Source: a virus
Length of the DNA: 21,375 bases
Direction: 5' to 3' (one strand)
Virus record (IMG/VR): IMGVR_UViG_3300037070_004799
Coordinates: 1 to 21,375 of that record
Position 1 is the first letter of the stretch. Each line of letters opens with the position of its first letter. The translations under genes were made by a program, and so were the position numbers. Shown here one piece after another: positions 2,461-19,940 of the stretch. Below the pieces are notes generated by a model, which was not told the DNA's origin, ran no database searches, and saw nothing but the letters and a program-made list of their open reading frames with translations.

Positions 2461-3048
2461 TTGAACGAGCATCAGCGGTTTGAGCAGGACTGGTGGGGGA
2501 CGTGTGTCAACACGTTCTTTGAGGAGTCGAAGCAGATCACCTACGCCTGGAACATGGGCCTGGAGATGATCCCGGACCCGAAGACTGGCATCTGGCCCCA
2601 GTACCCCTTGGGCGGCCGGAGAATCCTGGACATCGGGGGCGGCCCGGTGTCGCTCCTCCTGAAGTGCGTCAACTTCGGCCCCAGCCTGGTCATCGATCCC
2701 TGCCCCTACCCGGAGTGGGTGGACCACCGCTACGACCACGTCGGCATTGACATCATCCATGAGCCTGCCGAAGGCTTCCGGGTCCCGGAGCGGTTCGATG
2801 AGGTGTGGATCTACAACGTGCTCCAGCACGTCGAGGATCCCATCGAGTGCCTGGAGACGGCCCGGGCGCACGCGCCGCTGCTGCGGATCTTTGAGTGGAT
2901 CGACTTCCAGCCGTCCCTCGGTCACCCGCACGTCATCACCAAGGCGATGCTGGACGACTTCCTCGGGGTGAACGGCTCGGCGGAGTTCTTCGACGGCTCC
3001 AGCAACAACACCTACGGGAACGCCTACTTCGGGTCGTACGCCCTGTGA
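2461..3048 (+). CDS. SAM-dependent methyltransferase-like protein
   Basis: This 195-residue protein has a class I methyltransferase core. Motif I is ILDIGGGPVSLLL at residues 55-67, the glycine-rich S-adenosylmethionine loop. An acidic residue follows at the end of the next strand (VIDP, 77-80). A later strand and helix (FDEVWIYNVLQHVEDP, 112-127) resemble motif IV and the post-motif region of methyltransferases acting on small molecules or sugars. The protein is shorter than many family members and the substrate-binding C-terminus is small. The TTG start is chosen because the frame has no closer ATG or GTG at the N-terminus; the first ATG would cut about 30 residues. It overlaps the next gene by four bases. 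Placed next to glycosyltransferases, it may methylate a sugar or glycosylated virion protein, which is inference. Confidence 0.7.
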   Translation: MNEHQRFEQDWWGTCVNTFFEESKQITYAWNMGLEMIPDPKTGIWPQYPLGGRRILDIGGGPVSLLLKCVNFGPSLVIDPCPYPEWVDHRYDHVGIDIIHEPAEGFRVPERFDEVWIYNVLQHVEDPIECLETARAHAPLLRIFEWIDFQPSLGHPHVITKAMLDDFLGVNGSAEFFDGSSNNTYGNAYFGSYAL

Positions 3049-3848
3049 GTCTGGTTCCTGGCATCACCTTCGTGATGCGGTGCCGGAACGAGGAGGAGAC
3101 GCTGGGGGCGTGTCTGGCGGCGCTCACCCGGGTGACGACCCCGCACGAAGTGCTGGTGGTGCTCGACCGATGCACCGACGGCTCCGAGGTCATCGCCAAG
3201 GACGCCGCCAGCAAGAACCCCAACGTGCGCCTGATGAACTGGCTGACGCCCGTGTCGAAGGCGGGGTACGAGAACCTCGCTACCGATGCCCGATCCCCTC
3301 ACAGCCTGGTCTCGCACTTCAACACGCTCTGGGGAGCCCGTCGCTACGAGTGGGCGTTCAAGTGGGACGCCGACTTCCTGATGACCCCTGAGATCGCCGC
3401 CTGGGTGAACGACCGGACCTGGGAGTCCGACGGCACCCCGTTCTGGGTGTGGTTCGACGCCTGCGACATGGACGGCCAGGTCAACTCGGAGCCGTACCTC
3501 ACCTCGGGCCCGCTCTGGTTCGACAAGAACTGGTTCTGGGAGGACCGGTACACGACGGAGGGCCCTCGTATCCAGGACCACTCGGGGATGGCGATCCCGC
3601 ACCTCTCGACGGTCGGCACCATGAAGCCCTACTGGGCCGAGCCGCCGTGGTTCATAGACGCCGATACCCCCGAGGCGGCGAGTATCCGGGCCGCTCACGA
3701 CACTGTGGTGCGCCTGTGCGGCCCGGAGCCGGTGGGGATGGCGAGAGCGTCGAACCAGGCAGCCATCCCAACCCTCAACCGCATCTACGCTCAGCATGAC
3801 GCACTCGTCGCTGCGGGGATCTGCCCTGTGGGAGGTTGGATGCTGTGA
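3045..3848 (+). CDS. Glycosyltransferase, GT2-like (GT-A fold)
   Basis: This 267-residue protein starts like a family 2 glycosyltransferase: a first strand (GITFVMRCRNEEETL, residues 6-20), then VLVVLDRCTDGS (36-47), which corresponds to the usual V-D-D-x-S-x-D-G-T nucleotide-sugar site. The metal-binding DxD motif is D-A-D at 108-110 within F-K-W-D-A-D-F. The C-terminal half is Trp-rich and not assigned. The GTG at 3045 overlaps the methyltransferase stop (GTGA), so the two are probably translationally coupled. It would transfer a sugar from an activated donor. The acceptor cannot be read from the sequence, though neighbouring fibre genes make a virion glycoprotein possible. Longer N-terminal extensions in the same frame lie inside the methyltransferase gene and are not favoured. 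Confidence 0.8.
   Translation: MSLVPGITFVMRCRNEEETLGACLAALTRVTTPHEVLVVLDRCTDGSEVIAKDAASKNPNVRLMNWLTPVSKAGYENLATDARSPHSLVSHFNTLWGARRYEWAFKWDADFLMTPEIAAWVNDRTWESDGTPFWVWFDACDMDGQVNSEPYLTSGPLWFDKNWFWEDRYTTEGPRIQDHSGMAIPHLSTVGTMKPYWAEPPWFIDADTPEAASIRAAHDTVVRLCGPEPVGMARASNQAAIPTLNRIYAQHDALVAAGICPVGGWML
3831..3835 (+). promoter_or_regulatory. Ribosome binding site deciding the start at 3845
   Basis: GGAGG lies nine bases before GTG 3845. An alternative in-frame TTG at 3836 directly abuts it and would leave no spacer, so 3845 is the better start. Confidence 0.6.
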
Positions 3849-12984: not shown

Positions 12985-13569
12985 ATGGCTACCAGCATCT
13001 CCGAGCGGACCCGGCTTGTTGCCGACCCGCTCCGCAACTTCAAGTTCCAGATGGAGATCTTCCACTCCGATGGGGGTCTCCAGCAAGGCGTCGCCAAGAT
13101 CGGGTTCACCTCCATCGAGGGGCTGAACATGTCGACGGAGATGATCCCCTACCGGGAGGGTGGTTGGAACACCAACCCCCACAAGATGCCCGGGATGACG
13201 GACTTCTCTCCGCTGACGTGCTCCTCGGGGGTGTTCTTCACCAAGCCCGGGATGTGGAACGTGGCGAAGCAGATGTTCGCCGTCCAGTGGGGCAACGGCA
13301 CCATCCCCGCCGACACCGACTACCGCTTCGACGCCCTGATCCGGGTGTTCGACCACCCCGTCACGACGGGTGTGGGGGCGGCGGTGCGTGGTGACGTCCG
13401 GGGTGCCGTGCTGGCCTTCCAGGTGTACAACGCCTGGATCGCCAACATCGCCTTCTCGGGGCTGAACGCCATGGACAACGCCATCCTCGTCCAGCAGATG
13501 ACGATGCACCACGAAGGTCTCGACACCTTCTGGGGCACGGCGGAGACCGCCTCGCTGCGTCACGGCTAG
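12985..13569 (+). CDS. Tail tube protein, T4 gp19-like
   Basis: This 194-residue protein has the pattern of the T4 gp19 tail-tube family: an N-terminal D-P-L-R-N-F-K-F-Q-M-E-I strand (17-28), then G-F-T-S-I-E-G-L and Y-R-E-G-G-W-N (in the 40-60 region). P-G-M-T-D-F-S-P-L-T, a V-Y-N-A-W-I segment and a closing M-H-H-E-G-L strand follow. Length is typical. Tube proteins form stacked hexameric rings inside the sheath and make the channel for DNA. An AGGAG at 12974-12978, six bases upstream, sets the start. Sheath then tube then chaperone-like gene is the standard order in myoviruses and related injection systems. Confidence 0.93.
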   Translation: MATSISERTRLVADPLRNFKFQMEIFHSDGGLQQGVAKIGFTSIEGLNMSTEMIPYREGGWNTNPHKMPGMTDFSPLTCSSGVFFTKPGMWNVAKQMFAVQWGNGTIPADTDYRFDALIRVFDHPVTTGVGAAVRGDVRGAVLAFQVYNAWIANIAFSGLNAMDNAILVQQMTMHHEGLDTFWGTAETASLRHG

Positions 13570-13604: not shown

Positions 13605-14465
13605 ATGACATCTCCCCTGCACACGCTTCCTGACGCAGAGCCCGTTCCGGACGACGACTGGCCCGTCCCTGTCTCCGACAAGGAGTCGGACCTGAAGGCG
13701 GCCGAGGATGTGGTCCGTGGAGATGTCCCCAGGATCACGGAGGGGCCGGATCTGCTGGTCCGGCTCCCCCGTGGGCTCTATGTGAACAACACCTGGGAGG
13801 GCGAGGCCGAGGTCCGGGAACTCACCGGCAACGACGAGGAGGCTCTGGCCCGCTTCAAGGAGGCACCGGAGATCTTCAACGCCGTGGTGGTGTACGGGAC
13901 GTCCCGGATCGGCAGCACCGATCTCCTGGGCAAGTCCTACGCAGAGCGGGACGCCCTCCTCGGCAAGTTGCTGCTCGGTGAGCGAGAGCAGTTGTTCCTC
14001 AACGTCGCCCGGGTGACCTACGGGGACACCCGGGAGTTTGAGGAGAAGTGCCCGCAGTGCGAGACGGACCTGGACACGACCCTCATCATCTCGGAGGACA
14101 TCAAGATCCGGGAGATGGAGACACCCTTCCAGGTCCAGCGGTCCTACACCACGACGAAGGGCCGGAAGGTCACCTACCGCCTGGTGACCGGCAACGACCA
14201 GAAGTTGCTCCTCTCCCGGCGGGGAGCAACCGCTGCGGAGCACAACACGATCCTGCTCAGCGAGTGCATCATGCAGGTGGACGGACAGCCTGTCGTTGAC
14301 CCCGAGGCGTTCGCCAAGGGCCTTTCCATGGGAGACCGACGAGACCTCTTGACGGAGATGGTCGAGGAGCAGCCCTCCCCGACCCTCTCCATTGAGATCC
14401 CCTGCCCGTCGTGTGGGTTCGTGCTGACCCTGGGCCTGGGTTGGGAGCACTTCTTTCGCTTTTGA
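13605..14465 (+). CDS. T4 gp26-type zinc-ribbon tail assembly protein
   Basis: The 286-residue protein has an acidic N-terminal 50 residues, then L-V-R-L-P-R-G-L-Y (51-59). Two CxxC pairs lie at 149/152 (K-C-P-Q-C) and 267/270 (P-C-P-S-C-G-F), which probably bind one zinc. A central helical region carries D-R-R-D-L-L-T-E-M-V. Two CxxC motifs and this position between tube and tape measure match the gp26-like baseplate/hub assembly proteins found in contractile-tail phages and injection systems; the slot is also that of tail-assembly chaperones. It ends in F-R-F-stop at TTT TGA, and a downstream ORF is in the +1 frame. An AGGAG (13591-13595) nine bases upstream fixes the start. Function as assembly factor is inferred from family resemblance and position. 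Confidence 0.75.
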   Translation: MTSPLHTLPDAEPVPDDDWPVPVSDKESDLKAAEDVVRGDVPRITEGPDLLVRLPRGLYVNNTWEGEAEVRELTGNDEEALARFKEAPEIFNAVVVYGTSRIGSTDLLGKSYAERDALLGKLLLGEREQLFLNVARVTYGDTREFEEKCPQCETDLDTTLIISEDIKIREMETPFQVQRSYTTTKGRKVTYRLVTGNDQKLLLSRRGATAAEHNTILLSECIMQVDGQPVVDPEAFAKGLSMGDRRDLLTEMVEEQPSPTLSIEIPCPSCGFVLTLGLGWEHFFRF

Positions 14466-14466
14466 C
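14460..14466 (+). promoter_or_regulatory. Candidate +1 ribosomal frameshift site (TTTTGAC)
   Basis: The last sense codon and stop of the CxxC gene read TTT TGA C. A slip of one base forward lets the same tRNA-Phe re-pair with TTT and moves to GAC ACC AGT, entering the frame of the ATG at 14482 without a stop. TGA followed by C is a weak termination context, as in the RF2 (prfB) frameshift CTT TGA C. No RF2-like Shine-Dalgarno sequence lies three bases before it; the nearest, GGGAG at 14443-14447, is 12 bases away. A shift of -1 would stop at 14483-14485. Confidence 0.5.
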
Positions 14467-14481
14467 ACCAGTCGCCTGTAC

Positions 14482-14601
14482 ATGACCTATGACCTCATCG
14501 CACGGGAGTACCCGGGCTGGGGGATCACCGAGATCAAGAACCTGACCCGCAGAGAGCGGGACCACTGGCTGAGTCTGATGAAGTGGAGACGGAGTGGCTA
14601 G
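14482..14601 (+). CDS. Small tail assembly ORF, probably the frameshift extension
   Basis: A 39-residue frame follows the CxxC gene by 16 bases. It reads A-R-E-Y-P-G-W-G-I-T-E-I-K-N-L-T-R-R-E-R-D-H-W-L-S-L-M, a strongly conserved-looking helical motif of the W-x-x-x-E-I-x-x-L-x-x-R-E-R-D-x-W kind seen at the C-termini of tail-assembly chaperones and in small proteins of contractile injection systems (of the DUF6760 type, from memory). The ATG lacks a ribosome site. The frame is in phase with a +1 shift at 14460-14466, giving a fusion of about 331 residues through D-T-S-R-L-Y. It overlaps the tape-measure start (GTG 14594) by eight bases. Standalone translation by coupling is the alternative. 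Confidence 0.7.
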   Translation: MTYDLIAREYPGWGITEIKNLTRRERDHWLSLMKWRRSG

Positions 14602-17254
14602 TGAGCCGTATGCAGGAGGGATGCCTCCCAAGGACCCTCTTCCCGCTCCGAACCCGAGCCTGACGGGGGCCAAGTCTCGGAACGACGTGTCCTCGGGCGC
14701 TGATATCACGTTGCCCAAACTCAAGGACGTCCGCAAGGACGTGCAGGGGCTGACCTCCGACATCAAGGGCCTCTACGCCGCTCTCAAGGACTCCACCGTC
14801 GCCGGGGCTATCAACCGGGTGACCGGGGCCCTATCGAAGTTCACGGGGGGCAAGGGCGGGAGCACCAGCGACTCCTTCGGAGGAGCGAAGCCGAACGTCT
14901 GGCAGACCCAGGGTCCCAAACTCGCTGGTGATGTCCCCGGTCCCCAAACCGCCACTGGCGGTGGTGGGAACGGGCTTCCGCCCCCGCCCACTCAGGCGAC
15001 CTTCTTCCAGCAGCCAGGGAGTGGCGGCACTGGGGGTGGCAACGGCCCGGGCTCCGCTGACATGACAGCAGCGAAGTCCGTGGGCGGCGGGACGCTGAAC
15101 GCCATGAACGACTTCATGGACAACCTCATGGGCAAGAACGGGCTCCTGGGGGTGGCGTTCGCTGGGCTCAACGGCATGAAGCAGATGTACGGAGCCGTGG
15201 CCGGGAGCGGTATCCAGTACGCCTACAACCGGATCAACGGGCCCGAGGGCAACCTCAATTCCATGCTCTCGTTGAGCAATGCCCTGGCCCCCAACGCCAC
15301 CATGATGACGGCAGCGTCTGGTGGTTCTAACCCCATGCACATGCGGGAGATTATCCGAGGGCTCTCCCAGCGCATGCCGGTCATGGGCACCCAGAACGAC
15401 ATGATGGCGACGATCCTGGCGGGCCAGGGCGTCGGGGCCCTGATGGAAGGCACGCCCAGTCGGAACGGCTTCTTTGAGTCGGTACGCCAGATGCAGGTGC
15501 TCAACCCCGGGATGGCCCCAGGCACCTCGGCTGGGGCGCTGGCTGGCTACATGGGCAACGTCAAGGCCCAGCAGACCGGGGCGTTCCTCGGTGAAGGTGC
15601 GTTCACCATGATCGGCTCGGGCGGCCGGTACAAGACGCTGGCCGAGTGGGCTGCGGGCATCACGAAGTTCCTGGAGCAGCAGCGCCCTGGTGGGGACCAG
15701 GGGAGGCAGTTCACGCCGGAGCAGTTGATCACCCAGAACTTCCCCGGGTCGAACATCAACACTTGGTTCCAGATCATGGGCGTCCCTCAGACCATGGTCG
15801 ACTACTGGTGGCAGTACGTCCTCACCAACCGTGGGCATGTGCCTGCCAGCAAGGTCACGTCCGACACCCTCCGGGACATGACGTCGGCAGACCGGGGGCT
15901 CAACGTCGGTTACGAGCGGCTGCGGAACGTCACGCAGGGGACCCGTCGGGACTACCTCCTGGGCGGGCAGATGTACCAGTCCTACGCCGCCCGAGAGAGC
16001 GCTGACCGGCGCTTCAACGTGAGCATGCAGGCCACTGACTTCGGCCTGGGGCACATGCTGAAGACCACGAACATCGGTCGGATGTTGGCGCTGCTGCCGA
16101 CACCGATCATGGAGATGTTGATGCCTATCCTGACGGGCGTCGCCACCAGCCCGCTCGGGGCGATTGCGTCGCTCACGGGATCCGCCTTTGACATGCTGGG
16201 TGATCCCGGGGGCGACATGCCGTACGGAGCCCCGGCGGGTTCATACGGCGGAGCGGGCGGCATTGATACGGCGCACCTGAGCCCGGATCTGTCGAAGCGG
16301 GTCAACGCCATGATGAGGGCGAACCCGAAGTTGAAGATGTCCTCTTCGTATCGAGACACCGTCACCCAGAACCGCCTCCGCCGCAATGGTGCCGGGGCCG
16401 TGGGACATCCTTCCCGGAGCGCTCACACCCGTGGGTGGGCAGCGGACATCGGGCCGAAGAGCCAGATGGGCTGGCTCATGCAGAACGCAGGGAAGTTCGG
16501 GCTCCAGACGGCGGCGAACCAGGGGGAGCCCTGGCACATTCAGATGGGCGGCACCATGCCGATGGGTGACCCCGGTGGGAACGATATGCCGTATGGGGCT
16601 CCCTGGGACAGCATCTGGGATGTCGTTCCCGGGCCCGTCGATATTGGAATAGGGGGTGTTGGCGTCGGAGGGGTCTACGCCCCAGGCATTGGCGTCCATG
16701 GGACTGCCGACCCGACGGGCCTCATCGGGAGGGGTTGGAACAAGGCGTCGGATATCGCAGGCAACCTCGTTGTCGATGCGTTTGAGTTCATCATGGACCA
16801 CACCCTCAAGATCGCCCTCGACGGGTTGACGAAGTTGGTGGGGAAGTTCGCTACCAGTTCTTCGTACACCGGCAGCATCGACAAGTTGACCCAGTTGTAC
16901 TCCCGGATGATGCTCAAGCCGTTGGAGGGCTTGGTGAAACTCGGAGGGGACGCTCCCGATAGTTCGGCTGGGCTCTACCAGGCCATCAACCGAGAGACGG
17001 CTGTGATGAGTATCCCGATCCTCGGATACAAGGGCTTCGACCCTGAGCGGGAGTCGGATGTCACTTTCGGTGATCCCGGTGTCGACCCTAGGTCCATGAT
17101 GTCGGGCGGGAACAACCGGACCGTGGTGTTCAAGATCGAGAACATCGACGTGGGGGCCATCGGGAGTACCGCTGCTGATGCACGTCGAGTGGCGAGCACC
17201 TTGGTCACTCACCTGGAAGACGAGGTTCGACGGCGTGACTGGAGCCACGTCTGA
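14594..17254 (+). CDS. Tape measure-like tail protein with M15 peptidase domain
   Basis: The 886-residue protein lies where tape measure genes lie, just after the chaperone-type genes. A Gly/Pro-rich linker covers about 84-157. Hydrophobic helices are at about 181-207 and 498-529. Residues about 555-655 are a VanY/M15 peptidase domain with the zinc motif S-A-H-T-R-G-W-A-A-D (609-618; H611, D618) and E-P-W-H-I-Q (645-650; H648), which would cleave peptidoglycan peptides. G-D-P-G-G-(N)-D-M-P-Y-G-A-P occurs on both sides of it (536-547, 658-670). The GTG start has GGAG five bases before it; an ATG at 14621 is an alternative. The C-terminal 200 residues are helical. A tape measure role is inferred from position and size; the peptidase domain is clear. 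Confidence 0.8.
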   Translation: MASEPYAGGMPPKDPLPAPNPSLTGAKSRNDVSSGADITLPKLKDVRKDVQGLTSDIKGLYAALKDSTVAGAINRVTGALSKFTGGKGGSTSDSFGGAKPNVWQTQGPKLAGDVPGPQTATGGGGNGLPPPPTQATFFQQPGSGGTGGGNGPGSADMTAAKSVGGGTLNAMNDFMDNLMGKNGLLGVAFAGLNGMKQMYGAVAGSGIQYAYNRINGPEGNLNSMLSLSNALAPNATMMTAASGGSNPMHMREIIRGLSQRMPVMGTQNDMMATILAGQGVGALMEGTPSRNGFFESVRQMQVLNPGMAPGTSAGALAGYMGNVKAQQTGAFLGEGAFTMIGSGGRYKTLAEWAAGITKFLEQQRPGGDQGRQFTPEQLITQNFPGSNINTWFQIMGVPQTMVDYWWQYVLTNRGHVPASKVTSDTLRDMTSADRGLNVGYERLRNVTQGTRRDYLLGGQMYQSYAARESADRRFNVSMQATDFGLGHMLKTTNIGRMLALLPTPIMEMLMPILTGVATSPLGAIASLTGSAFDMLGDPGGDMPYGAPAGSYGGAGGIDTAHLSPDLSKRVNAMMRANPKLKMSSSYRDTVTQNRLRRNGAGAVGHPSRSAHTRGWAADIGPKSQMGWLMQNAGKFGLQTAANQGEPWHIQMGGTMPMGDPGGNDMPYGAPWDSIWDVVPGPVDIGIGGVGVGGVYAPGIGVHGTADPTGLIGRGWNKASDIAGNLVVDAFEFIMDHTLKIALDGLTKLVGKFATSSSYTGSIDKLTQLYSRMMLKPLEGLVKLGGDAPDSSAGLYQAINRETAVMSIPILGYKGFDPERESDVTFGDPGVDPRSMMSGGNNRTVVFKIENIDVGAIGSTAADARRVASTLVTHLEDEVRRRDWSHV
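16199..16603 (+). repeat. Direct repeats flanking the M15 domain
   Basis: G-D-P-G-G-D-M-P-Y-G-A-P is encoded at 16199-16234 and G-D-P-G-G-N-D-M-P-Y-G-A-P at 16565-16603, one on each side of the peptidase domain. The two DNA copies differ at several third positions and by one inserted codon, so they are not a recent exact duplication. A partial third version, G-D-P-G-V-D-P, occurs at about 17069-17089. Confidence 0.75.
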
Positions 17255-18552
17255 TGATCGTCAATGTCTTCCAGCCCGCCATCACGGTCCGTCCTCCGTC
17301 GAACATCGTGGGGGAGGTCTCGGAGTCGCAGTACGCCCAGGAGAGGTTCCTCACCGCATCGCAGGGGCTGTCCAACCCGGGGTTCGCCTTGACCCGTGGG
17401 GGCAACCCGCTCCAGCCGAACGGGGGCCAGATCCTGCGGGGGTACATCCGGCGGAGCCGTATCGATAGCGGCGACGCAACCAGTCGATACCGCCTCTACT
17501 TCATGTTCAACCCCGAGGTGATCAACCGGTCCTACATCGCCTATCTAGACCAGCAGGCCCTCGATCCGGGGAACGCCATGTTCGGATCGCACAACATGGC
17601 ATCGGCTCCCGGCATCCTCGACTTCCAGTTTGAGTTGCTGTTCGACCGTGCCATCGAGGTGGCCCGGGACGAGAACCACCCCGGCACCAAGGTGGACTAC
17701 GACTTCTTCGACCTCGTCGTGCGGGGCATCGTCCCAGACAGCCAGGACACCGGGAACGCCATCCCCGACAACGGGATCATGATGGTGAGCCCGAGCAATG
17801 TCACTATCGTCTTCGGGGAGGATCTCTCGGTCCAGGGTCGGCCCTACAACGCCGTCGTGCGGTGGGAGAAGTTCAGCCACCGCATGATCCCGACCCGGAT
17901 GAAGATCGGGATCCAGATGAAGGCGTTCTACATCGGACCGATCCAGGACACCCCCGGCTTCTCACAGAACTTCTCGCAATCGGTGGCCGAGGCGGTCGTG
18001 CCCTACAACGAGACCTTCAAGGTCAAGGCGGTTGCGGAGGAAGGGAAGACCGCCAAGAAGGAAGGAACCGAGAGCGCCACCGAAGGCTTCACCAGGAAGT
18101 TGGTATCAACGGCGAGAGCGACGTCGGGGTTTGAGAACCCGTACACGGCGGGCCAGAACCCGTCCCCCGGTGACTCGACCGGGAGGACGCTGACGATCAA
18201 CCAGGCTGCCTCCTACGCCGTCGCCGCAGGCTTCCTGTACGAGAACCTCATCCACATCCTCTGCATCGCCATCCGGGAGTCCCGCCTCAAGACCGACGCC
18301 ATTGGTGACGTCAGCCTCCAGACCGCTACCTGGGGCCCGTCGGTCGGGCTCACGCAGATCCGTTCGCTCGTAGCCCAGTTCGGGACCGGCGGGCAGCGGG
18401 ATCAGGTGGCGAACCTCGACCCGGCGATCCACATGCAGCACGCCTGGGAGATCTCCGCAGGGGGCACGAACTTCAAGCCCTGGTCCACCAACGCCGGGTG
18501 GGAGCAGCACCGGGAAGAGGTCGAGAACGCCCTCCGGACGGGGGTCGGCTGA
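17254..18552 (+). CDS. Baseplate/tail-tip protein with lytic transglycosylase domain
   Basis: The 432-residue protein has two parts. Residues 59-282 are a beta-rich core (L-R-G-Y-I-R-R-S, R-L-Y-F-M-F-N-P-E, Y-L-D-Q-Q-A-L-D-P, L-D-F-Q-F-E-L-L-F-D-R, R-M-I-P-T-R-M-K-I) shared with the next gene. After a K-K-E-G-T-E-S-A-T-E-G-F-T-R-K linker, residues about 315-430 look like a soluble lytic transglycosylase (SLT) domain: I-A-I-R-E-S-R-L (338-345) with catalytic E342, G-L-T-Q-I-R (365-370) and A-W-E-I-S-x-G-G (397-404). It would cut the glycan strands of peptidoglycan during injection. The ATG overlaps the tape-measure stop (TGATG), with GGAG nine bases upstream. Baseplate/hub placement is inferred from order and from the partner hub gene downstream. 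Confidence 0.85.
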   Translation: MIVNVFQPAITVRPPSNIVGEVSESQYAQERFLTASQGLSNPGFALTRGGNPLQPNGGQILRGYIRRSRIDSGDATSRYRLYFMFNPEVINRSYIAYLDQQALDPGNAMFGSHNMASAPGILDFQFELLFDRAIEVARDENHPGTKVDYDFFDLVVRGIVPDSQDTGNAIPDNGIMMVSPSNVTIVFGEDLSVQGRPYNAVVRWEKFSHRMIPTRMKIGIQMKAFYIGPIQDTPGFSQNFSQSVAEAVVPYNETFKVKAVAEEGKTAKKEGTESATEGFTRKLVSTARATSGFENPYTAGQNPSPGDSTGRTLTINQAASYAVAAGFLYENLIHILCIAIRESRLKTDAIGDVSLQTATWGPSVGLTQIRSLVAQFGTGGQRDQVANLDPAIHMQHAWEISAGGTNFKPWSTNAGWEQHREEVENALRTGVG

Positions 18553-19445
18553 TGCCCACCGACAACTTCATCACGTTCAACGAGTTCAACCCCACGGTCG
18601 CCATCTCAATCCCTATCGATAGCGGTATCGGCCAAGGGGCCGACTACTCCACCATGCTCCGGAACCGCTCGATGCAGCGGCTGGACGACAACGACTTCGC
18701 CCTGTCGAACCCCTCGTTCGACACCAGGGCGGCAGGACGCATCGCCAACTCGTTGGCCGAGCGAACCCGGTCGGATGTCCGCATCCTGCGGGGGTACATC
18801 CGTCGGTCTGCGATCAACGGTACCGACCCGACGAGCAAGTATCGGCTCTACTTCATGTTCAACCCGGAGACACTCCAGCGGGACTTCGTCTCCTACCTCG
18901 ACCAGCAGGCGCTCGACCCGTTCAACACGGTCTTCGGAGCCAACAACCTCGTCGCTCCGCCGGGGGTGCTCGACTTCTCGTTCGACCTGTACTTCGACCG
19001 CCAGACCGAGAACGCCAACGGGCGGATGCCTCGGGGCGTCCTGGAGGACTTCGACTACTTCAACCTCGTCGTGCGTGGGGTGGTCCCGGACTCGCAGACC
19101 CCGGACCTGCCCGACAACGGCGTCCTCATGATCAACCCCCGGAACATCACCGTGGTGTTCAGCCCGCAGATCTCGATTCAGGGGCGTCCCCAGAGCGCCT
19201 TGGTCTCCTACGAGAAGTTCGACCACCGCATGCGGCCGATCCGGATGAAGATCACCATCTCGGTGAAGGCGTACTACATCGGGCCCGTGCGTCAGGACTT
19301 CACCTTTGCCTCCACCGGTTCAGCGGGCAGGGTCGAGGCTGTTGTTCCGTACAACGAGACGTTCAAGGTGAGGGCTGTCGCAGAGGAGTCGAGGGCCGCT
19401 AAGAAGGAAGGCACCGAGTCTGCAACCGAGGGCTTCACCAGGAAG
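17428..19445 (+). repeat. Paralogous core domain duplicated in adjacent genes
   Basis: Residues 59-282 of the 17254 gene (17428-18099) align with residues 77-298 of the 18552 gene (18780-19445). Shared blocks include I-L-R-G-Y-I-R-R-S, Y-R-L-Y-F-M-F-N-P-E, Y-L-D-Q-Q-A-L-D-P, V-V-R-G-(I/V)-V-P-D-S-Q and P-Y-N-E-T-F-K-V. At DNA level an identical 20-base block occurs at 17432-17451 and 18783-18802. Identity ends right after E-G-F-T-R-K, where the hydrolase domains begin. Confidence 0.85.
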
Positions 19446-19940
19446 AAGGATCCTCAGGGGAAGCAGGACGAGTGGGGGAACCCCTTCAGTGCGCCCCTCC
19501 CGACCGGTGGGGCGGCGACCGGACAAGGGCTGCTCGACGCTGCTGCCACCTTTCTCGGGGAGCGCTACAACCAGGGTCCTCAGCGTTGCTCTCCGACGTC
19601 CGGGTACAAGGACTGCTCCGGGCTCATCGTCGCCTCGTTCGCTGTGGCGACCGGGGGGAACCTGGGGGCCACCGTCTCTTCGTCCATCTGGAAGTTGTGC
19701 GCCGATGCTGGTCTCGGTATCTCTCGGGCGGACGCTTTCAACATCCCGGGGGCCTGTCTCCTGATGCCGGATGACCCCATGAAGGGTGCTGGGAACGACG
19801 GCCACATCGGCTTCTCCGACGGGAACGGCGGCACCATCGAAGCCACGGGCTCGTCGGTGCAGAAACTCCCCAACAACTACCAGCGGTGGGGCAAGGAAGC
19901 CTGCCTCCTCCCCTTCATCGCTTACTCCAGGAGCAAGTGA
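18552..19940 (+). CDS. Baseplate/tail-tip protein with NlpC/P60 peptidase domain
   Basis: The 462-residue protein shares its core (77-298) with the preceding gene but ends in a different domain. After the K-K-E-G-T-E-S-A-T-E-G-F-T-R-K linker, residues about 325-462 match NlpC/P60 cysteine peptidases: L-D-A-A-A-T-F-L-G-E-R-Y, the catalytic Y-K-D-C-S-G-L-I (C355), and G-N-D-G-H-I-G-F (H418), with E430 in the following strand. Such enzymes cut peptide links of peptidoglycan. The N-terminal 75 residues are unique to this copy. ATG 18552 overlaps the previous stop by one base (TGATG); upstream in-frame codons lie inside the earlier gene and are rejected. With the SLT sister it could form a hub carrying two wall-cutting activities. 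Confidence 0.85.
   Translation: MPTDNFITFNEFNPTVAISIPIDSGIGQGADYSTMLRNRSMQRLDDNDFALSNPSFDTRAAGRIANSLAERTRSDVRILRGYIRRSAINGTDPTSKYRLYFMFNPETLQRDFVSYLDQQALDPFNTVFGANNLVAPPGVLDFSFDLYFDRQTENANGRMPRGVLEDFDYFNLVVRGVVPDSQTPDLPDNGVLMINPRNITVVFSPQISIQGRPQSALVSYEKFDHRMRPIRMKITISVKAYYIGPVRQDFTFASTGSAGRVEAVVPYNETFKVRAVAEESRAAKKEGTESATEGFTRKKDPQGKQDEWGNPFSAPLPTGGAATGQGLLDAAATFLGERYNQGPQRCSPTSGYKDCSGLIVASFAVATGGNLGATVSSSIWKLCADAGLGISRADAFNIPGACLLMPDDPMKGAGNDGHIGFSDGNGGTIEATGSSVQKLPNNYQRWGKEACLLPFIAYSRSK

What the first reader, a model, noticed from the sequence alone, without database searches (positions are those of the whole stretch)
13605..14601. Candidate RF2-like +1 frameshift joining the CxxC tail protein to a 39-codon ORF
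The gene ends TTT TGA C at 14460-14466. A +1 slip keeps tRNA-Phe on TTT and enters the frame of the next ORF with no stop, adding D-T-S-R-L-Y and then a conserved-looking E-I-x-x-L-T-R-R-E-R-D-H-W-L helix. The downstream ATG has no ribosome site. The locus sits between tube and tape measure, where phages classically use a -1 frameshift to make two tail-chaperone forms. A +1 version at a TGA, on a zinc-ribbon gp26-like protein, would be an unusual solution. No stimulatory Shine-Dalgarno sequence is obvious, which weakens it.
Basis: partly seen in the sequence, partly recalled or inferred. Interest (0 to 1): 0.8.

Follow-up and report, generated by a model that had tools for sequence, protein, structure and literature searches.

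The report
Frameshifted tail chaperone at conserved TTT-CGC
This phage gene very probably makes two versions of a tail-building helper protein by having some ribosomes skip one base at a conserved TTT-C spot, and its relatives make the same two proteins with a forward slip, a backward slip or (phage T4) two separate genes, which would explain why T4 seemed to lack this trick.

Summary
Both ORFs and the +1 frame relation are real. The +1 frame is kept in 124 diverged loci (43 clusters of close relatives plus 81 distant ones), so a programmed +1 frameshift is well supported by comparison. The conserved site lies two codons upstream: in-frame TTT_CGC at 14454-14459. That Phe is TTT in 30 of 30 clusters, and the next codon always starts with C (CGN 27, CAR 3); other Phe codons in these genes are 81 TTT to 173 TTC. 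A freshwater group uses CTT_YTA, and distant phages use YTT_Y. Part 1 is the T4 gp26 family (PF12322), and its predicted fold best matches two solved phage proteins, one the HK97 tail assembly chaperone. In cyanophages, KVP40 and Atu_ph07 the same two parts are in -1 relation, and 84 of 84 loci carry an X_XXY_YYZ heptamer (2 of 124 in +1 loci). T4 gp26 and gp51 are paralogues, gp51 carrying the part-2 region in frame. So one chaperone pair is expressed by +1 shift, -1 shift or gene duplication. UUU_CGN was proposed before for unrelated haloarchaeal myoviruses; the family-wide pattern and the T4 link I did not find in open literature. No peptide evidence exists.

The parts
12985..13569 (+). tail tube protein (T4 gp19 family), upstream neighbour
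   Evidence: PF06841 E 4.3e-21, phrog_4542
13605..14465 (+). short form of the tail assembly chaperone, 286 aa, T4 gp26 family with two CxxC motifs
   Evidence: PF12322 43.1 bits against cut-off 24.5; phrog_150 E 7.5e-11; AlphaFold pLDDT 91.6, best VIA matches 3klu Z 7.5 and HK97 tail assembly chaperone 2ob9 Z 6.4
14454..14459 (+). proposed +1 slip site TTT_CGC (P-site TTT, A-site CGC)
   Evidence: TTT in 30/30 clusters at this Phe, next codon CGN 27 / CAR 3
14458..14601 (+). part 2 read after the +1 slip: 47 codons and stop; long form is 331 aa
   Evidence: open +1 frame conserved in 43/43 clusters; phrog_10636 E 0.0017
14463..14465 (+). zero-frame stop TGA ending the short form
14460..14466 (+).
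   Evidence: found only in the window and its identical contig L007
14594..17254 (+). probable tape measure protein (886 aa, by position and length), start overlaps the end of part 2
   Evidence: ORF list and gene order in BRock, LuckySocke, SP-15, LIS04, immuto

Best explanation
The locus encodes a tail assembly chaperone in two forms, analogous to lambda gpG and gpGT. Most ribosomes stop at TGA 14463 and make the 286-aa short form. A fraction slip +1 when tRNA-Phe on UUU (14454-14456) re-pairs with UUC while the next codon CGC waits in the A site; they continue at 14458 and make a 331-aa long form with the C-terminal helix domain (part 2). Shown by computation: the parts, the conserved frame relation, the conserved UUU_C, the homology of part 1 to T4 gp26, and the chaperone-like predicted fold of its N-terminal domain. 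Inferred: that the shift occurs in cells, its efficiency, and that the short form coats the tape measure while part 2 recruits tube subunits (from lambda G/GT).
For: Position between tube and putative tape measure. Part 2 in +1 in all 43 clusters of close homologues, with no conserved start codon: 13 of 43 have no ATG/GTG/TTG in the +1 ORF before the conserved core. Slip-site Phe is TTT in 30/30 clusters against 81 TTT:173 TTC elsewhere in the same genes and 11:97 in those with GC of 57% or more (product of TTT fractions about 1e-16, treating clusters as independent); Arg there is always CGN and changes only to CAR. In this window TTT is 22 of 233 Phe codons. A freshwater group has CTT_[TC]TA in 12/12 clusters (chance about 1e-7). 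Distant phages have YTT_Y in 72/74 clusters; the 2 exceptions have part 2 in -1 and an A_AAT_TTC heptamer. In the -1 lineages 84/84 loci have X_XXY_YYZ, against 2/124 of +1 loci. Fold: 3klu (YqbN) and 2ob9 (HK97 chaperone) are the top two of 995 chains. UUU_Ynn is known to be prone to +1 shifting in bacteria (PMC5009743), and UUU_CGU is the proven influenza PA-X site (PMC3498833).
Against: No protein or reporter evidence for any member. No selected Shine-Dalgarno or downstream RNA structure. CGC is not rare in this phage (11 per 1000 codons), so what slows the A site is unknown. In one jumbo phage (LR756511) part 2 is a separate ORF with a TAATG overlap and no such slip site. VIA Z of 6.4-7.5 is moderate.
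Confidence: 0.88

Rival explanations
1. RF2-like +1 shift at the stop: tRNA-Phe on TTT 14460-14462 slips with TGA in the A site.
For: TTT_TGA fits YUU_Y with a stop in the A site and gives the same +1 frame. It could act as a second site in this phage.
Against: It is unique to this phage; in all other clusters the codon before the stop differs and most cannot re-pair in +1 (CTC, CAG, ATC, ACC). No conserved upstream Shine-Dalgarno at RF2 spacing.
Confidence: 0.07
2. Part 2 is a separate gene expressed from its own start or by translational coupling at the stop.
For: Annotated separately in BRock, LuckySocke, GiJojo, SP-15, Bellamy and KVP40; KVP40 has a TAATG overlap; LR756511 appears to do this.
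Against: 13/43 clusters have no ATG/GTG/TTG before the core, 7/43 have an ATG after the slip site, and hardly any have a ribosome site. It does not explain invariant TTT_C or why -1 loci carry a heptamer and +1 loci do not.
Confidence: 0.05
3. Transcriptional slippage on a T run, or a sequencing error, creates the fusion.
For: Many distant homologues have runs of 6-8 T at the site.
Against: The window has only TTCTTTCGCTTTT, too short for bacterial transcriptional slippage by general knowledge; the arrangement recurs in over 200 loci.
Confidence: 0.02

Closest known systems
Lambda G/GT-type tail assembly chaperones (Xu, Hendrix and Duda 2004, as cited in PMC5009743)
   Same: Two products from one start; [quoted passage not shown] gene between tail tube and tape measure; part 1 predicted fold matches the HK97 chaperone 2ob9
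   Different: Direction is +1, not -1; part 1 is the larger zinc-ribbon T4 gp26-family protein; part 2 is about 47 aa
HF1-group and HSTV-2 haloarchaeal myoviruses, proposed TTT-CGC +1 shift (PMC7230728; HSTV-2 remark in PMC5009743)
   Same: Same motif, same direction, same genomic position; TTT CGC seen here in HSTV-2 gene 22
   Different: HSTV-2 gene 22 is a different, acidic protein without the gp26 zinc-ribbon features; archaeal hosts; not followed across bacterial phages
Influenza PA-X (UCC_UUU_CGU) and plant amalgavirus UUU_CGN shift sites (PMC3498833, PMC5052127)
   Same: Same tetranucleotide UUU_C and CGN A-site codon; all four CGN codons accepted
   Different: Eukaryotic ribosomes and RNA viruses; here CAR and CCN are also accepted, and relatives use YUU_U
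T4 gp26 and gp51 hub chaperones (PMC3004832) and short cyanophage gp51 (PMC3037559)
   Same: gp26 is homologous to the short form; gp51 = gp26-like region plus a C-terminal extension matching part 2
   Different: T4 uses two genes instead of a frameshift; cyanophages and KVP40 use -1 at T_TTT_TTC
Bacillus phage 0305phi8-36 two-gene tail chaperonin (PMC2147016)
   Same: G and GT analogues encoded by two paralogous genes without a frameshift, as proposed here for T4
   Different: No homology to this family was tested

Membership tests
Frameshifted tail assembly chaperone (G/GT type) | Gene pair between major tail (tube) gene and tape measure | tested here: met
   (tape measure assigned by position and length in the window)
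Frameshifted tail assembly chaperone (G/GT type) | Second ORF lacks its own start and is in a fixed shifted frame across relatives | tested here: met
   43/43 clusters +1; 13/43 with no start codon at all
Frameshifted tail assembly chaperone (G/GT type) | Fold of the short form like solved tail chaperones | tested here: met
   VIA: 3klu Z 7.5, rmsd 3.6, 89 aligned; 2ob9 Z 6.4, rmsd 3.1, 79 aligned; next rows 4.2 and 3.5; Foldseek prob 0.98 for 2ob9 but E 0.085. Moderate scores; that 3klu (YqbN, XkdN-like) is a chaperone is my own knowledge
Frameshifted tail assembly chaperone (G/GT type) | Long form made at a few percent; both forms absent from virions and needed for assembly | not testable with these tools
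   needs protein data and genetics
UUU_CGN +1 shift motif | In-frame UUU followed by CGN inside the overlap | tested here: met
   14454-14459; TTT 30/30, CGN 27/30 clusters
UUU_CGN +1 shift motif | Measured +1 shift at this site | not testable with these tools
   reporter or mass spectrometry needed
RF2-type +1 shift | Stop codon directly 3' of the slip codon, conserved | tested here: not met
   TTT_TGA only in this phage
RF2-type +1 shift | Shine-Dalgarno about 3 nt upstream of the slip codon | tested here: not met
   mean z -0.04 against synonymous recodings; the W-G-D subgroup has TGGGGNGA 4 nt upstream but no more than its amino acids demand
T4 gp26 family (PF12322) | Pfam score above gathering cut-off | tested here: met
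   43.1 bits, cut-off 24.5
T4 gp51 (C-terminal region) | Part 2 homologous to the gp51 C-terminus | tested here: inconclusive
   Direct comparison weak (E 0.05; E 0.013); linked through cyanophage part 2: vs gp51 C-terminus Prob 94, E 1e-7; vs +1 part 2 Prob 92, E 8e-7

The most novel reading that the evidence does not exclude
The T4 gp26/gp51 hub chaperones and the frameshifted gene pairs of actinophages, Firmicutes and Bacteroidetes phages, jumbo phages and cyanophages are one tail assembly chaperone system. The long form is made by a +1 shift at YUU_Y in most sampled lineages, by a -1 shift at U_UUU_UUC (or A_AAU_UUC) in others, with at least one independent switch of direction, and by gene duplication in T4. 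This would explain why T4 appeared to be the exception to the G/GT rule and why cyanophage gp51 appeared to lack its first 200 residues.
Probability: 0.8. Interest if true: 0.85.

Novelty: new variant of a known kind. Interest (0 to 1): 0.78.

Why it matters
Tail chaperone frameshifting is a classic of phage biology, and reviews name T4 as its exception (PMC5009743). [quoted passage not shown] This family would resolve both at once and give gp26/gp51 a testable role. It also provides a natural set of over 200 shift sites in which direction (+1 or -1) changes while the proteins stay homologous, a rare chance to learn what sets direction, and evidence for UUU_Y as a recurrent bacterial +1 signal, for which annotation tools have no general motif (PRFect paper, PMC10885494). 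Many phage genomes are mis-annotated at this gene.

Tried and rejected
(1) TTT_TGA as the slip site: not conserved. (2) Upstream Shine-Dalgarno: mean z -0.04 (n 31) for UUU_C and 0.22 (n 12) for CUU_Y clusters against synonymous recodings. (3) Downstream RNA structure: mean z -0.12, n 43. (4) Direct part 2 to gp51 comparison was not significant; only the chain through cyanophage part 2 was. (6) gp51 model against the PDB: no informative match. (7) PDB sequence searches: only short zinc-finger matches. (8) First family searches failed because of a wrong part-2 frame in my coordinates, then repeated. (9) The protein tree is of moderate quality; the T4 branches are long and their exact place is unsure.

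Full report
WHAT IS THERE. The window is an IMG/VR virus record of 21,375 bases. Gene 13605-14465 lies between a gp19-type tail tube gene and an 886-aa ORF at 14594 in tape-measure position, and belongs to the T4 gp26 family: PF12322 at 43.1 bits (cut-off 24.5) and phrog_150 'baseplate hub'. It ends TTC TTT CGC TTT TGA C. The +1 frame is open across the stop and encodes 47 residues after the proposed slip, ending at 14601 and overlapping the start of the next gene.

RELATIVES. The only isolates close by are six records of Streptomyces myoviruses (BRock in two records, LuckySocke, Alone3, pSt2308, GiJojo). IMG/VR gave about 100 more loci and bacterial genomes two. Clustering at 80% amino-acid identity left 43 clusters. 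In every one a small ORF with the motif E-I-x-x-L-T-x-R-E-R-x-x-W, or a close variant, follows in the +1 frame. In pSt2308 and LIS04 no gene is annotated there.

THE SLIP SITE. The codon before the stop is not conserved, so TTT_TGA is not the family's site. What is conserved is TTT followed by C, 1-3 codons before the stop in nearly all clusters (further upstream in L087): here 14454-14457. Codon alignment of 30 UUU_C clusters shows Phe 30/30 and TTT 30/30 at this column, while other Phe columns are mostly TTC (for example 16 of 18). Elsewhere in the same genes the count is 81 TTT and 173 TTC, and 11 to 97 in GC-rich members. The next codon is CGC, CGT, CGG, CGA, CAG or CAA, never AGR, so the C itself is kept when the amino acid changes. 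L087 and the Terracoccus genome locus L134 have TTT_CCN instead. A freshwater group has CTT_TTA or CTT_CTA in 12 of 12 clusters. Both fit re-pairing of a P-site YUU codon one base forward on YUU_Y.

ALTERNATIVES. Independent initiation is unlikely: 13 of 43 clusters have no ATG, GTG or TTG in the +1 ORF before the conserved core, and hardly any candidate start has a ribosome site. Neither an upstream Shine-Dalgarno nor a downstream RNA structure is selected beyond what the amino acids demand. The window's T runs are too short for transcriptional slippage (general knowledge).

A WIDER FAMILY. Following part 1 outwards reached Bacillus SP-15, Listeria LIS04, Streptococcus phage GXN1, Microcystis Mel-JY01, Flavobacterium immuto and a 484-kb phage, all with part 2 in +1. 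A further 77 distant loci gave 74 in +1, 2 in -1 and 1 undetected. Of 74 clusters of this distant group, 72 have in-frame YTT_Y, mostly TTT_TGG. The other two have A_AAT_TTC, a sequence of the standard -1 heptamer form, and their part 2 is in the -1 frame. They sit inside the +1 clade, so direction switched there.

THE -1 LINEAGES. Cyanophage Bellamy, Vibrio KVP40 and Agrobacterium Atu_ph07 have part 2 in the -1 frame with T_TTT_TTC. In 80 distinct junctions the heptamer is present 80 times and the -1 frame is open 80 times. Across all loci, X_XXY_YYZ within 12 codons of the stop occurs in 84/84 of -1 loci and 2/124 of +1 loci. Frame assignment did not use the slip site, so this agreement is an independent test.

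T4. Profile comparison makes T4 gp26 and gp51 paralogues over the whole of gp26 (Prob 98.8); gp51 then has about 45 extra residues. Cyanophage part 2 matches that extension (Prob 94, E 1e-7), the cyanophage long form matches gp51 through it (Prob 97.6), and cyanophage part 2 matches the +1 part 2 (Prob 92, E 8e-7). So T4 gp26 corresponds to the short form and gp51 to the long form. The literature read had the pieces: gp26 and gp51 listed as hub assembly chaperones with gp51 called essential and of unknown function (PMC3004832), cyanophage and vibriophage gp51 missing the first ~200 residues (PMC3037559), a two-gene chaperonin in 0305phi8-36 (PMC2147016), and T4 named as the exception to G/GT shifting (PMC5009743). 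I found no paper joining them in the open library searched; subscription papers and preprints were not available.

FOLD. The AlphaFold model of part 1 (pLDDT 91.6) gives as top two of 995 solved chains 3klu (YqbN, which I know as an XkdN-like phage protein) at Z 7.5 and the HK97 tail assembly chaperone 2ob9 at Z 6.4, over residues 47-140; the next, ORF19 of a phage-inducible island, has Z 4.2 and unrelated ones 3.5 or less. These are moderate scores but both stand clear of the rest.

NOVELTY. UUU_CGN +1 shifting is established for influenza PA-X (PMC3498833), inferred for plant amalgaviruses (PMC5052127) and was proposed for HF1-group haloviruses (PMC7230728), with HSTV-2 noted as very likely +1 (PMC5009743). 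A frameshifted tail chaperone is a known kind. New here are the identification of the T4 gp26 family as such a chaperone, the YUU_Y site across bacterial phages, the change of direction within one family, and the T4 duplication. All of it is comparative; no shift has been measured.

Noticed in passing
L132 (LR756511) 3001-3768: This jumbo phage lacks the slip site; part 2 is a separate ORF beginning at an ATG overlapping the stop (TAATG). It is the one clear exception and may have moved to coupled initiation.
   Followed up: partly
L133 2821-3735 and L134 2995-3831: Two bacterial genome assemblies (Streptomyces diastatochromogenes, Terracoccus) carry the gene with TTT_CGC and TTT_CCG and part 2 in +1, so the system also sits in chromosomes, as prophage or contractile injection system.
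   Followed up: no
window 17254-18552 and 18498-19940: Two adjacent proteins share a similar N-terminal region (RGYIRRS...YRLYFMFNPE) but end in different wall-degrading-type domains (SLT_3 lysozyme-like E 3.8e-17; weak NlpC/P60).
   Followed up: no
window 14594-17254: The putative tape measure protein has a weak VanY-like peptidase match (E 0.08); the BRock counterpart is annotated 'endolysin' and is probably its tape measure.
   Followed up: no
window, all + strand genes: Only 1 TTA codon in 6,568 counted, as expected for a phage of GC-rich actinobacteria; CTA 5.
   Followed up: no
L118 14982-15813: Halovirus HSTV-2 gene 22 has TCC TTT CGC, matching the full influenza UCC_UUU_CGN cassette, in a protein that does not look like the gp26 family; possible convergence.
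   Followed up: partly
L131 (PQ819873): A phage recorded from Streptococcus agalactiae carries an SP-15-like tail module, and only 40 features are annotated in 176 kb.
   Followed up: no
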